Shown: piece by piece, positions 17,871 through 48,987 of the stretch
How the letters are laid out: every line of letters begins with the position of its first letter
Position numbering within the stretch: position 1 is the stretch's first letter
DNA from: Neoscytalidium dimidiatum
Taxonomy: Eukaryota > Ascomycota > Dothideomycetes > Botryosphaeriales > Botryosphaeriaceae
Direction of reading: 5' to 3'
NCBI GenBank assembly: GCA_037367355.1
Contig: CM074699.1
Coordinates: forward strand, 620,001-684,000
DNA length: 64,000 bases
Position numbers and translations under genes: made by a program
The notes under the pieces: model-generated
Told to the model about the DNA's origin: nothing
The model's input: only the letters and a program-made list of their open reading frames with translations
The model's database searches: none

Positions 17871-17876
17871 AAAAAA
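17871..17876 (-). terminator. RNA polymerase III terminator of tRNA-Leu
   Basis: Six T residues on the minus strand, 8 nt after the discriminator base of the tRNA gene, matching the T-run stop signal of Pol III. Confidence 0.8.
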
Positions 17877-17884
17877 GATAATGA

Positions 17885-18050
17885 TGAGAAGAGTGGGACT
17901 CGAACCCACGAAGGTTTCCCAACTAGTAAACCCTGTCTTCGGGACTCTTTTCAGAAGACCTGAAACTAGCCTATGATGTTGTTAGATGAGTGTTGAGGTG
18001 GGAGTTGTGTTTACTGGTGACTTACGCCATAACCACTCGGCCATCTTCCC
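17885..18050 (-). tRNA. tRNA-Leu (anticodon CAG) with a canonical intron plus a spliceosomal-type intron
   Basis: Read on the minus strand. The acceptor stem is GGGAAGA (18050-18044) paired with TCTTCTC (17892-17886), followed by discriminator A at 17885. The D arm carries the A box TGGCCGAGTGG; the T arm carries the B box GGTTCGAGTCC with a perfect GTGGG/CCCAC stem. The anticodon stem is CTAGT (17969-17965) with ACTAG (17927-17923), and the loop TTCAGGT gives anticodon CAG. A73, a long variable arm and the D-arm pattern all fit leucine. Two insertions must be removed. A 30-nt intron at 17958-17929 sits after position 37 and can pair with the anticodon, as usual. A 55-nt insertion at 18025-17971 lies between positions 25 and 26, begins GTAAGT, contains CTAAC and ends CATAG. 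Without removing it no anticodon arm forms. See findings. Confidence 0.85.
17971..18025 (-). other. Spliceosomal-type 55-nt intron inside the tRNA gene
   Basis: GTAAGT at the 5' end, a CTAAC branch-like word 11 nt before the 3' end, and a CATAG 3' end. Length and signals match the protein-gene introns in this window. It splits the tRNA between the D stem (C25) and G26. A 4-bp TATG/CATA pairing is the only hint of a bulge-helix-bulge alternative, and no flanking helices are seen. Confidence 0.7.
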
Positions 18051-46398: not shown

Positions 46399-48555
46399 TC
46401 AACCCTTACCGAAAGCAAGCTTCATTTGCCCCTTCTCTGGTCCCTTAGCAGTGCTTCCCGAACCGGCTGGTCTCCCTCTTCCCCGCGGCTTGGGCATCGT
46501 GGTGGACGAGGTCGCCGGTGCAGAGGACCGTGCGGCGGAAGAGGCGGCGCGGTCCTCGGCCTGGAGCTGCTTGGCTAGATCCTTCGCGACATGATAGTCC
46601 AAGTGTTCGGCTTCCTGGAAGACGGGGAGACGGGTAGAGCAGCGCTCGCAGAAAAAGGTGTCCAGGGTGGTTTGATGAGGTTGGGCAGCAGCGTGAGTAG
46701 GGACAATGGCTGAACTTGAGGCCATAGAGTGATGAGAAAGGATTTGAGGTTGCGGTTGGGCTGAGGGTGGTGGGATGTCGGACGGGAATGGTTCTTTCCG
46801 GACGCGCTCGATGTCGTCAAGGCTGGATTCGGTGAAAGGATGATGGTCTTCGGGCATGAAGTCTTGGATGGTATCATGTTCAGCTTGCTCGGACGCAGCT
46901 CTACTATTCTCTCTGCTCATTGGGGGGCTGTGCTCGTTACCAGAGTCATCACGGCTGCTTTGGCGCGGGCCGAAGAATCTTTGGATACCGTCGTTGTTTT
47001 TGCGTTTCTTCTGGGGCGGCAAAGAATCAAATCTCTCATGCTTACTTGCGGATGAAACCCTGTCGCCGGAGAGCATTGCTTTGGCTTCCTCGCCACGAAC
47101 AAGAAAGCTTCCGATGCCTTTATTGCCAGTAATGCCATCCTCAAAACCGCCTACACTCAAAGAAAGATTGGAGCACGGCCAAGCCCGTCCGTCCACGACC
47201 ACTTGAGCGAGGAGACCTTTGGCAAGATCGAACAACATTTCTTCGGAAAAGATCTTAGCCTGGGGAATCGGGGCTTGTTTTGATCGGGTCTGCATCCCTT
47301 GTCGATGGTGCAAATTGATAGTCTTTGGTCTGCGCTTGTTTTCAAGGACACCTTCTTCCACACAGCGGGAGAATATGTCTGCACAGAAAATGCGTAGCCA
47401 CCTGATGCCCTGATCGAAGGTGTTGATGGACGGACGAAAAGATTTGGCAGAAAGCATGCTCTTGATTTGTAGCCGGGAATTCACCTCGCTGGTATCGTTG
47501 CCACGGATGATATCATAAAGCCAGATACCGGTGCCATCGCCGAGTCTTTGGAGCTGCTCTAGAGACACATCCAACAGGTCCTTGACAGTTTCAGTGTTGA
47601 ACATAGCTACAACCTCGTCGCCGAGCTTCCCGCCCAAATTGCGAATCTTCGTGAACTTCAGATCACTAAGGAAGTTTTGCACTGCGCGATTGCGAACAAC
47701 GGTCTGCTGGTTGGGTTTCCTGTGGCCGGACCCAAGCTTGGCGAGCATCTTGTTCCGCGCCACTCCTCCGGAGCAAGTGTACTTTAGCTCTGCGTAGATC
47801 TTCGCGCGCACATCCCGCACGATCTCCGAGCCAATCAGAATGGCGATGTCATCCCAATCTGGGTCGTCGTCTTCAGTCTCGGTGGAATCCAGATCAATCA
47901 GATGGTCCGTCTGCCAGTCCAAAGCCGTTGTGGGCGGCCGCGGCAGGTTCTCGGTTGGATCATCGTACGGCGGCGGGCCAGCCAGCTCGGGATACCTCTC
48001 CAACATGATGCTATGCACCTGCGCCGACAGATCCATGAAGACCTCGTCAATGCTCGCCTTCTCGACCCTCTGCAGCTCCTTCGGCAACGAGTTCTTTATC
48101 AACGCTAGGATCTTCCGCGACTCGAGGCGGTACGGGTCTAGGCTGACCTTGTGGGTGGCCATGTTCTTGAACGCGTCGTCATGGTAGGCCCAGCGCTCGT
48201 CGCCCTCCTTCCATGTCGCGACATGCTGGCAGATCAGCTCCGGGCAGAGCTTCTGGGCCTCGGAGGCCGTGACGTGCCGGCTCAGGCCGTATGCGCGCGC
48301 CGGATAGTTAATGGCAATGAGGCCCTGCCATTGCTGCACGGCCAGCGGCTGGTCCGCCGGCACGCCCAGGCGCACCATCTCGCACTGCGCGTAGAAGGCA
48401 TCGAGGTCGATATGGGCGACTACGCGTAGTGGGCACGTCGTCGTGAAGGTTGAGAGCTGCGAGAGCTGCCGGAACGTGAATTGTGATTTTCGACGGCGCC
48501 CATTGCTTGTTGTGGAGAGGGGCGAGGACTCGATGAACGGTTGCGAAGACGACAT
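46399..48555 (-). CDS. RAD30: DNA polymerase eta (Rad30), Y family
   Basis: 718 residues from the ATG at 48555, single exon. Pol eta copies past UV cyclobutane dimers in the nucleus. The catalytic carboxylates are D50 and D52 in 'VVAHIDLDAFYAQCE' and D170/E171 in 'ASIDEVFMDLS'. 'GLIAINYPARAYGLSRHV' is the finger segment. 'CSGGVARNKMLAKLGSGHRK' and 'IRNLGGKLGDEV' are the helix-hairpin and thumb parts. The tail has a PCNA-binding box QTTLDTFF (628-635) running straight into a ubiquitin-binding zinc finger (C636, C639, H651, H655). A second PIP-like 'NDGIQRFF' lies further upstream, and the protein ends 'QMKLAFGKG'. The upstream frame to 48681 adds 42 unconserved residues and is rejected. Confidence 0.95.
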   Translation of the reverse strand: MSSSQPFIESSPLSTTSNGRRRKSQFTFRQLSQLSTFTTTCPLRVVAHIDLDAFYAQCEMVRLGVPADQPLAVQQWQGLIAINYPARAYGLSRHVTASEAQKLCPELICQHVATWKEGDERWAYHDDAFKNMATHKVSLDPYRLESRKILALIKNSLPKELQRVEKASIDEVFMDLSAQVHSIMLERYPELAGPPPYDDPTENLPRPPTTALDWQTDHLIDLDSTETEDDDPDWDDIAILIGSEIVRDVRAKIYAELKYTCSGGVARNKMLAKLGSGHRKPNQQTVVRNRAVQNFLSDLKFTKIRNLGGKLGDEVVAMFNTETVKDLLDVSLEQLQRLGDGTGIWLYDIIRGNDTSEVNSRLQIKSMLSAKSFRPSINTFDQGIRWLRIFCADIFSRCVEEGVLENKRRPKTINLHHRQGMQTRSKQAPIPQAKIFSEEMLFDLAKGLLAQVVVDGRAWPCSNLSLSVGGFEDGITGNKGIGSFLVRGEEAKAMLSGDRVSSASKHERFDSLPPQKKRKNNDGIQRFFGPRQSSRDDSGNEHSPPMSRENSRAASEQAEHDTIQDFMPEDHHPFTESSLDDIERVRKEPFPSDIPPPSAQPQPQILSHHSMASSSAIVPTHAAAQPHQTTLDTFFCERCSTRLPVFQEAEHLDYHVAKDLAKQLQAEDRAASSAARSSAPATSSTTMPKPRGRGRPAGSGSTAKGPEKGQMKLAFGKG

Positions 48556-48987
48556 AATTTGGGCCTGGACGTCGTCGAGGCGGCGCGCCTCATCGAGTGG
48601 GAGACATGGCGGGGATAAGCTGACGAAGTGGTGGCTGCGGTCGCGGTAATCGCGAAGGAACAACGCGCGAGGGCGCGGCACGCGTCATCGGCGGCTCGGA
48701 CGCGAGTGAAGGGTCCTGACCGCAGGGCTGCGGACAACGCATAGCAGTCTTCCCCATTGCTGCATGGATGCATCTTGTACATGCGTACATTGCAATAGCT
48801 TTCTTGTCGCTTGCTTCCAAGTGTGTTCCTATTACTACATGTTCACTTGGAGTGCATTGCGTCCTTGTCGATCCATGCTAGCGCGGATCTATGTCATCAT
48901 TGATTCAAACATCGCGCAGCAGGTGCTCCTCTATATATGCTGGTAGCACATCTAATGCATTCCATACTACGAACTGCATAGACTCCG
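48556..48987. other. Divergent promoter region of RAD30 and the small membrane protein
   Basis: About 430 bases. No clear TATA box for RAD30; a TATATA-containing word near 48932 could serve the plus-strand gene. Confidence 0.4.

What the first reader, a model, noticed from the sequence alone, without database searches (positions are those of the whole stretch)
17885..18050. Leucine tRNA gene that needs two different splicing systems
Seen: removing a 30-nt canonical intron after position 37 and a separate 55-nt insertion between positions 25 and 26 yields a complete tRNA-Leu(CAG). The product has A and B boxes, all four stems, A73 and a T6 terminator. The 55-nt insertion starts GTAAGT, has CTAAC near its end and finishes CATAG; its length equals the protein-gene introns around it. 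Established: eukaryotic nuclear tRNA introns sit at 37/38 and are cut by the tRNA endonuclease. mRNA-type introns in Pol III genes are known for U6 snRNA in some fungi. I know of no described spliceosomal intron in a nuclear tRNA. Inference: the pre-tRNA is processed first or second by the spliceosome, or the intron makes maturation depend on splicing.
Basis: partly seen in the sequence, partly recalled or inferred. Interest (0 to 1): 0.92.

Follow-up and report, generated by a model that had tools for sequence, protein, structure and literature searches.

The report
tRNA genes with mRNA-type introns
A fungus carries messenger-RNA-style introns inside many of its transfer-RNA genes, including every copy found of the start-codon and tryptophan tRNAs, so making its tRNAs would seem to need the spliceosome as well as the usual tRNA-splicing enzyme.

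Summary
The window gene (minus strand, 18050-17885) is a tRNA-Leu(CAG) with a canonical 30-nt intron at 37/38 and a 55-nt GTAAGT...CTAAC...ATAG insertion at 25/26. A paralogue in the same genome lacks just that insertion. Searches of this genome (Botryosphaeriaceae-like ascomycete) gave 24 tRNA genes, read in full, with such an insertion, plus 3 seen only as exon gaps: 12 isoacceptors, 9 positions, none at 37/38. 23 of 24 are GT-AG (one GC-AG), 51-64 nt, with a branch-site-like motif 8-17 nt from the 3' end. All copies found of initiator Met (4), Trp (3), Pro(AGG), Pro(CGG), Gly(TCC), Arg(CCT), Arg(CCG) and Ala(CGC) are interrupted, so the cell must remove them if these genes are its supply. 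Five insertions split the T-loop and thus the Pol III B box; all five carry a new B-box core, none of the other 19 does. Bulge-helix-bulge pairing is at control level overall. Best reading: Pol III pre-tRNAs spliced by the spliceosome, then by the tRNA endonuclease. There is no RNA evidence, no related genome could be searched and the census is incomplete. Ten paper searches showed no precedent in nuclear tRNA.

The parts
17885..18050 (-). tRNA-Leu(CAG) gene, whole, with two introns
18026..18050 (-). Exon 1: acceptor 5' strand and D arm, positions 1-25
   Evidence: joined positions 5-38 are 97% identical to the C8 paralogue
17971..18025 (-). 55-nt mRNA-type intron at 25/26: GTAAGT ... CTAAC ... 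ATAG
   Evidence: absent in paralogue L054
17981..17985 (-). Branch-site-like CTAAC; presumed branch A at 17982, 11 nt before the intron's 3' end
17959..17970 (-). Exon 2: positions 26-37 with anticodon CAG
17929..17958 (-). 30-nt canonical tRNA intron at 37/38
17885..17928 (-). Exon 3: positions 38-73 with variable arm, T arm and A73
18033..18043 (-). A box TGGCCGAGTGG
   Evidence: read directly
17896..17906 (-). B box GGTTCGAGTCC
   Evidence: read directly
17871..17876 (-). T6 Pol III terminator

Best explanation
The 55-nt insertion is a spliceosomal (U2-type) intron in a functional Pol III tRNA gene, one of at least 27 such genes in this genome. Pol III transcribes the gene from its A and B boxes to the T run. 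The spliceosome, recognising GTAAGT, CTAAC and AG, removes the D-arm, anticodon-stem or T-loop intron in the nucleus. The rejoined transcript can then fold, and the tRNA splicing endonuclease and ligase remove the 37/38 intron where there is one. Where the intron splits the T-loop, the intron itself supplies the B box. Shown here: the gene anatomy, the splice signals, intron-less paralogues, no uninterrupted iMet or Trp copy found, and a B-box core in all five T-loop introns. Inferred: Pol III transcription, spliceosomal removal, and the order of the two splicing reactions.
For: Paralogues without the insertion exist for Leu (L054), Phe (L064, L067), Ala(AGC) (L074) and Asp (L156). 24 sequenced introns: 14 GTAAGT, 9 other GT, 1 GC; all end AG; length 51-64; a branch-like motif, chosen from a short list, 8-17 nt from the 3' end. 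Among iMet copies exon 1 is 78-100% identical while intron bodies are near shuffled level (52-63% against 52-59%); Trp likewise, 96% against 56% (shuffled 53%). Unbroken copies: 0 of 4 iMet; 0 of 3 Trp, 0 of 3 Pro(AGG), 0 of 2 Pro(CGG), 0 of 1 Gly(TCC), 0 of 2 Arg(CCT); 0 of 1 Arg(CCG), 0 of 2 Ala(CGC). T-loop introns: 5 of 5 carry GTTCGA, 0 of 19 others. In one search each of the 13 rows that needed a GT-AG removal (12 genes) had one removal only that gave the best tRNA. ARAGORN names the right isotype in 2 of 24 genes unspliced and in 20 of 24 with the intron removed. T4 or longer follows within 70 nt in 23 of 24.
Against: No RNA data; no related genome could be searched. The signals were not compared with a curated set of coding introns of this genome, and the window motif scan showed weak enrichment at most. 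Copy counts are lower bounds by the tool's own statement, so an unbroken, diverged iMet or Trp gene could have been missed. Two supporting copies look worn: iMet C12 is GC-AG with exon changes, and the third Trp copy matches only at 84-95%. The four ARAGORN failures after removal include the window gene. Four of 24 junctions, in two sister pairs, could form a full BHB central helix. In Phe genes the first T4+ lies 43-50 nt downstream, and for Arg(CCG) too little flank was held. Fold alone does not place the junction to the base.
Confidence: 0.92

Rival explanations
1. The insertions are ectopic tRNA introns removed by the tRNA splicing endonuclease, as in archaea, nucleomorphs and Cyanidioschyzon.
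For: Ectopic and multiple tRNA introns exist in those groups (PMC4090602 and PMC3978253, passages), and PMC3978253 says that many nucleomorph ones form no defined BHB, so absence of a BHB alone does not exclude the enzyme. Four of 24 junctions could pair all four bases of a central helix, against 3.3% in a random control.
Against: Those four are two pairs of sister genes (Pro(CGG), Trp), and mean pairing over all 24 is at control level (4.04 against 3.81). There is a shared sequence grammar GT/branch motif/AG. PMC4033280 (passage) states that the yeast enzyme cleaves strictly at 37/38.
Confidence: 0.04
2. The interrupted loci are silent pseudogenes or relics, and other intact genes supply the cell.
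For: Copies without the insertion exist for Leu(CAG), Phe, Ala(AGC) and Asp. One iMet copy (C12, L060) has GC-AG ends and several exon changes, the third Trp copy is diverged, and an Ala(AGC) copy (L072) shows no exon 1 nearby.
Against: No unbroken iMet or Trp copy was found. The joined exons still make complete stems, most followed by T runs, while intron bodies drift.
Confidence: 0.02
3. The genes are transcribed by Pol II, for instance inside longer transcripts, spliced as mRNAs and trimmed to tRNAs afterwards.
For: Spliceosomal introns are normally tied to Pol II transcripts (general knowledge).
Against: A and B boxes and T runs are kept, and all five T-loop introns carry a replacement B-box core, which makes best sense if TFIIIC must bind.
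Confidence: 0.05

Closest known systems
Spliceosomal introns in the nuclear rRNA genes of ascomycetes (Bhattacharya 2000 and Cubero 2000 as cited in PMC8527467 and PMC11889510; passages seen)
   Same: mRNA-type introns (one of 57 bp is described) in a non-coding, non-Pol II gene; the PMC8527467 abstract says the fungus's splicing machinery removes the introns from rRNA.
   Different: rRNA, Pol I, long repeats; no internal promoter to be broken and no second, endonuclease-type intron in the same transcript.
mRNA-type introns in the U6 snRNA genes of some fungi (recalled; also named in the finding; no paper on it was read)
   Same: Spliceosomal intron in a Pol III gene.
   Different: U6 is a spliceosome component, not a tRNA; here many isoacceptors, an endonuclease intron as well, and B boxes inside introns.
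Canonical eukaryotic tRNA introns at 37/38 cut by the SEN endonuclease (PMC4090602, passages)
   Same: Short introns in nuclear tRNA genes; the window gene also has one.
   Different: Fixed place and structure-based recognition; the 55-nt insertion is elsewhere and follows a sequence grammar.
Ectopic or multiple tRNA introns of Cyanidioschyzon merolae, nucleomorphs and archaea (PMC4090602, PMC3978253 passages; PMC9602550 listing only)
   Same: Introns in D, anticodon and T arms, several per gene.
   Different: Described as endonuclease-cut, mostly at BHB structures; no GT-AG/branch-site grammar appears in the passages seen.
Introner-like elements in fungi (title seen only in a reference list)
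   Same: Multiplication of spliceosomal introns in fungi.
   Different: The tRNA introns are mostly not alike in sequence (6 of 276 pairs with z > 4), so no recent copy-and-paste burst is visible.

Membership tests
Spliceosomal (U2-type) intron | 5' splice site GT (or GC) with GTRNGT-like consensus | tested here: met
   23 of 24 GT, 1 GC; 14 of 24 GTAAGT
Spliceosomal (U2-type) intron | 3' AG and a branch-site-like motif at short distance | tested here: met
   24 of 24 AG; CTAAC, CTAAT, TTAAC or CTAAG 8-17 nt from the 3' end in 23; the GC-AG copy has only CTAC at 12. Motifs were taken from a preference list, so a weak one can be chance
Spliceosomal (U2-type) intron | Removal restores the functional RNA; intron-less paralogues exist | tested here: met
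Spliceosomal (U2-type) intron | Same signals as coding introns of the same genome | tested here: inconclusive
   Only a motif scan of the window: 28 against 17.9 (sd 4.5, maximum 28) in 50 shuffles
Spliceosomal (U2-type) intron | Removed by the spliceosome as a lariat | not testable with these tools
   Needs RNA
Eukaryotic tRNA intron cut by SEN endonuclease | Position 37/38 | tested here: not met
   The 55-nt insertion is at 25/26; the 24 insertions lie at nine sites, none 37/38. The 30-nt intron of the same gene does meet it
Eukaryotic tRNA intron cut by SEN endonuclease | BHB or BHB-like junction | tested here: not met
   Window insertion: 1 of 4 central pairs; over 24 junctions at control level, with four exceptions in two sister pairs
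Group I or group II self-splicing intron | Catalytic core | tested here: not met
   51-64 nt long; no Rfam match to such a family at E <= 0.001 in 19 of the 24 loci (one sub-threshold tmRNA match in L069) or in the window
Functional nuclear tRNA-Leu(CAG) gene | Cloverleaf, A and B boxes, T run | tested here: met
Functional nuclear tRNA-Leu(CAG) gene | Expressed and charged | not testable with these tools
   Needs tRNA-seq

The most novel reading that the evidence does not exclude
In this fungal lineage tRNA production as a whole depends on the spliceosome. All initiator-Met and Trp tRNA genes, and all copies of six other isoacceptors, carry mRNA-type introns, at up to nine different places over the tRNA set. 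Many transcripts pass through two unrelated splicing machines in a fixed order. Introns that broke the internal promoter survived because the intron carries the B box, so a promoter element of a Pol III gene has moved into a sequence that is thrown away. Spliceosome capacity would then limit translation initiation directly.
Probability: 0.85. Interest if true: 0.96.

Novelty: new variant of a known kind. Interest (0 to 1): 0.94.

Why it matters
Textbook division of labour gives nuclear tRNA introns to the endonuclease and ligase and mRNA introns to the spliceosome; a 2026 review (PMC13149111, passages) still classes tRNA splicing as spliceosome-independent. A genome in which initiator and Trp tRNAs carry GT-AG introns would show that the spliceosome can act on very short Pol III transcripts whose mature exon may be only about 15 nt, presumably without a cap, which makes the roles of exon length, cap and Pol II tail in splicing directly testable. 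It would also show how a broken internal promoter can be rescued by its intron. And such genes are easy to miss: the Rfam tRNA model found 1 of the 19 intron-bearing loci given to it at E <= 0.001, so tRNA sets of related fungi may be incomplete.

Tried and rejected
Considered and rejected: Gly(ccc) with one 72-nt intron (ARAGORN), because the Leu reading has complete stems and a clean paralogue. SeC(tca) with an intron is an initiator Met gene. Protein-coding look-alikes of the A-box+GTAAGT pattern (L184, L185; judged by eye) and the 15 further hits of the GTAAGT...GTTCGA pattern (L200-L214) gave no tRNA; that pattern as such occurs no more often than its reversed control (19 against 31). Recent introner burst: intron bodies mostly unalike. 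Dead ends: the yeast tRNA query matched nothing; the A-box pattern had the wrong spacing and missed even the window gene, corrected; patterns in viral contigs and genome contigs found nothing, as expected of collections without fungi. Ten paper searches listed no report of a spliceosomal intron in a nuclear tRNA gene; three of them matched more papers than were listed, and subscription papers and preprints are not held. T runs inside the introns (none longer than 4) are too few to count as avoidance. Parser control: of 147 loci of at most 500 bases, 43 parsed as tRNA with or without one GT-AG removal and 104 did not; one of the 104 (L179, branch motif CTAAG) is a true case by hand. In 70 longer sequences (275,153 bases) two of 11 GT-AG parses were wrong alternates of real genes (L020, L075), and the parser missed L060 (GC-AG) and L084 (GTCAGT), which were set by hand.

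Full report
What is in the window. On the minus strand, 18050-17885, there is a tRNA-Leu(CAG) gene in three exons. The 30-nt piece 17958-17929 is a normal 37/38 tRNA intron. The 55-nt piece 18025-17971 sits between positions 25 and 26, begins GTAAGT, has CTAAC with the presumed branch A 11 nt before its end, and ends ATAG. The joined 81-nt product folds as a cloverleaf and a T6 run starts 9 nt after A73. The tools tried misread or miss it, except Rfam on a short piece.

The organism. The pol eta protein of the window (46402-48681) is 80-82% identical to proteins named from Lasiodiplodia, Neofusicoccum, Diplodia and Macrophomina, so the genome is from Botryosphaeriaceae or close by (Dothideomycetes). 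It has 43.76 Mb in 40 contigs. I give no species; that the size resembles Botryosphaeria dothidea is recalled only.

The same thing elsewhere in the genome. A Leu(CAG) paralogue on C8 has no break at 25/26. Searches with joined tRNA sequences of the genome and with short patterns brought out 24 tRNA genes read in full with a GT-AG or GC-AG insertion away from 37/38: Leu(CAG) 1 at 25/26; initiator Met 4 at 24/25; Phe 3 at 30/31; Ala(AGC) 4 at 19/20; Ala(CGC) 1 at 15/16 and 1 at 57/58; Arg(CCG) 1 at 26/27; Arg(CCT) 1 at 28/29; Asp 1, Pro(CGG) 2 and Gly(TCC) 1 at 57/58; Trp 2 at 24/25; Pro(AGG) 2 at 23/24 (positions counted by hand in standard tRNA numbering). Three more, Trp C1:3404258-3404390, Pro(AGG) C3:2890112-2890253 and Arg(CCT) C7:1216735-1216874, appear as exon gaps that begin at the same places and were not read. 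The census is incomplete: the Rfam search scored 63 of 1020 candidates, and only 100 of 260 B-box hits were listed, 60 of them fetched.

Signals. Lengths are 51-64 (median 56.5). Starts: GTAAGT 14, GTAAGC 3, GTTAGT 2, and one each of GTATGT, GTCAGT, GTGAGT, GTACGT and GCGAGA. Ends: CAG 12, TAG 9, AAG 3. A branch-like motif lies 8-17 nt from the end. In iMet (exon 1 78-100% identical) and Trp (96%) the intron bodies are near shuffled level; in Phe they are at or a little above it (57-60% against 50-56%); the Pro(CGG) pair (85%), the Pro(AGG) pair (74%) and some Ala(AGC) pairs (up to 72%) are clearly alike. So ends and branch site are kept while the rest drifts, as expected of spliceosomal introns.

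Necessity. For iMet 4 of 4 and for Trp 3 of 3 copies found are interrupted; so are all copies found of Pro(AGG) 3, Pro(CGG) 2, Gly(TCC) 1, Arg(CCT) 2, Arg(CCG) 1 and Ala(CGC) 2. One iMet copy (C12) and the unread Trp copy (84-95% identity) are diverged and may be worn. No other tRNA can replace initiator Met, or Trp(CCA) at UGG (general knowledge). If these genes are the supply, the introns must be removed. The searches give lower bounds. Mixed families are Leu(CAG) 1 of 2, Phe 3 of 5, Ala(AGC) 4 of 6 (another, L072, shows no exon 1 within about 400 nt upstream) and Asp 1 of 5. Gly(GCC) and elongator Met genes seen have 37/38 introns only. Asp L154 and L156 share a 37/38 intron that differs by one base but differ by the T-loop intron, a recent gain or loss.

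The moved B box. Five introns split the T-loop at 57/58, in the middle of the B box. All five contain GTTCGA beginning 12-15 nt after their start; none of the 19 other introns does; the chance per intron by shuffling is 0.7-1.5%. Three of the five were found by a pattern that did not ask for it, two by homology. Two of the five are sister genes, so there are four separate cases. In the Gly gene the core is followed by TT instead of a CC-type end, so it is a weaker B box. The simplest reading is that TFIIIC binds the intron, which also argues for Pol III.

Not the endonuclease. A BHB model at each junction gives a mean of 4.04 pairs against 3.81 in the control; 4 of 24 have a full central helix (two sister pairs, Pro(CGG) and Trp) against 3.3% expected. 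This is a result against, limited to those genes. Some nucleomorph tRNA introns are said to lack a defined BHB (PMC3978253, passage), so the sequence grammar weighs more than the missing BHB. Group I/II introns are excluded by size and by no Rfam match in the loci scanned.

How it likely works. Pol III transcription; spliceosomal removal of the GT-AG intron in the nucleus; folding; then endonuclease and ligase removal of the 37/38 intron. The order is inferred: the endonuclease needs the folded tRNA body (general knowledge), which a D-arm or T-loop insertion breaks. Not shown: any RNA, any lariat, any protein contact.

What is known. Spliceosomal introns in ascomycete rRNA genes are established (passages of PMC8527467 and PMC11889510), and U6 introns in fungi are recalled. 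In reviews of tRNA introns (passages of PMC4090602, PMC3978253 and PMC4033280) ectopic introns are described for algae, nucleomorphs and archaea; the word 'spliceosom...' occurs 0, 1 (about protein genes) and 0 times. PMC13149111 (passages) places tRNA splicing outside the spliceosome. In the passages shown of the tRNAscan-SE 2.0 paper (12 of 19 places) noncanonical introns are treated for archaea, and 'spliceosom...' does not occur in its text. Passages of PMC11782384 gave nothing on the point. Ten searches listed no report of a spliceosomal intron in a nuclear tRNA gene; the library holds open-licence papers only.

Verdict. Observation confirmed, interpretation supported and widened from one gene to a genome-wide feature. 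I call it a new variant of a known kind because spliceosomal introns in other non-coding genes are known; tRNA as host, two splicing machines for one transcript and the B box inside the intron are, as far as I could find, new.

Noticed in passing
L154 (C6:3301774-3301936), L155 (C1:3220917-), L161, L162, L175: T-loop introns that split the B box each carry a GTTCGA B-box core beginning 12-15 nt inside the intron (5 of 5; 0 of 19 other introns).
   Followed up: yes
L154 versus L156: Asp(GTC) sister genes whose 37/38 introns differ by one base, one with and one without the T-loop intron: a recent gain or loss.
   Followed up: partly
L060 (C12:1574909-): Fourth initiator Met gene has GC-AG ends, a weak branch motif and several exon changes; possibly decaying.
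   Followed up: no
L072 (C9:1013063-): Ala(AGC) gene without a recognisable exon 1 within about 400 nt upstream (read by eye).
   Followed up: partly
L183 (C9:2039960-2040220): An initiator-Met-like 5' half followed by GTAAGT but no 3' half nearby; maybe a relic.
   Followed up: no
G000 contig C40: tRNA-rich contig (probably mitochondrial) with gene pairs about 176.85 kb apart in 308 kb: perhaps a circular genome assembled nearly twice.
   Followed up: no
3' flanks of Phe genes L064, L067, L075, L076, L084 and Ala genes L069, L079, L081: A downstream stretch that could form a hairpin (CCAGTCTCAGGCTGG and variants in Phe, CTGGTT..CCAG-like in Ala) before a late T run.
   Followed up: no
Gly(GCC) genes L068, L071, L077, L078, L080, L085, L086: Long 37/38 introns (38 to 67 nt by the parser), very variable in sequence between copies.
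   Followed up: no
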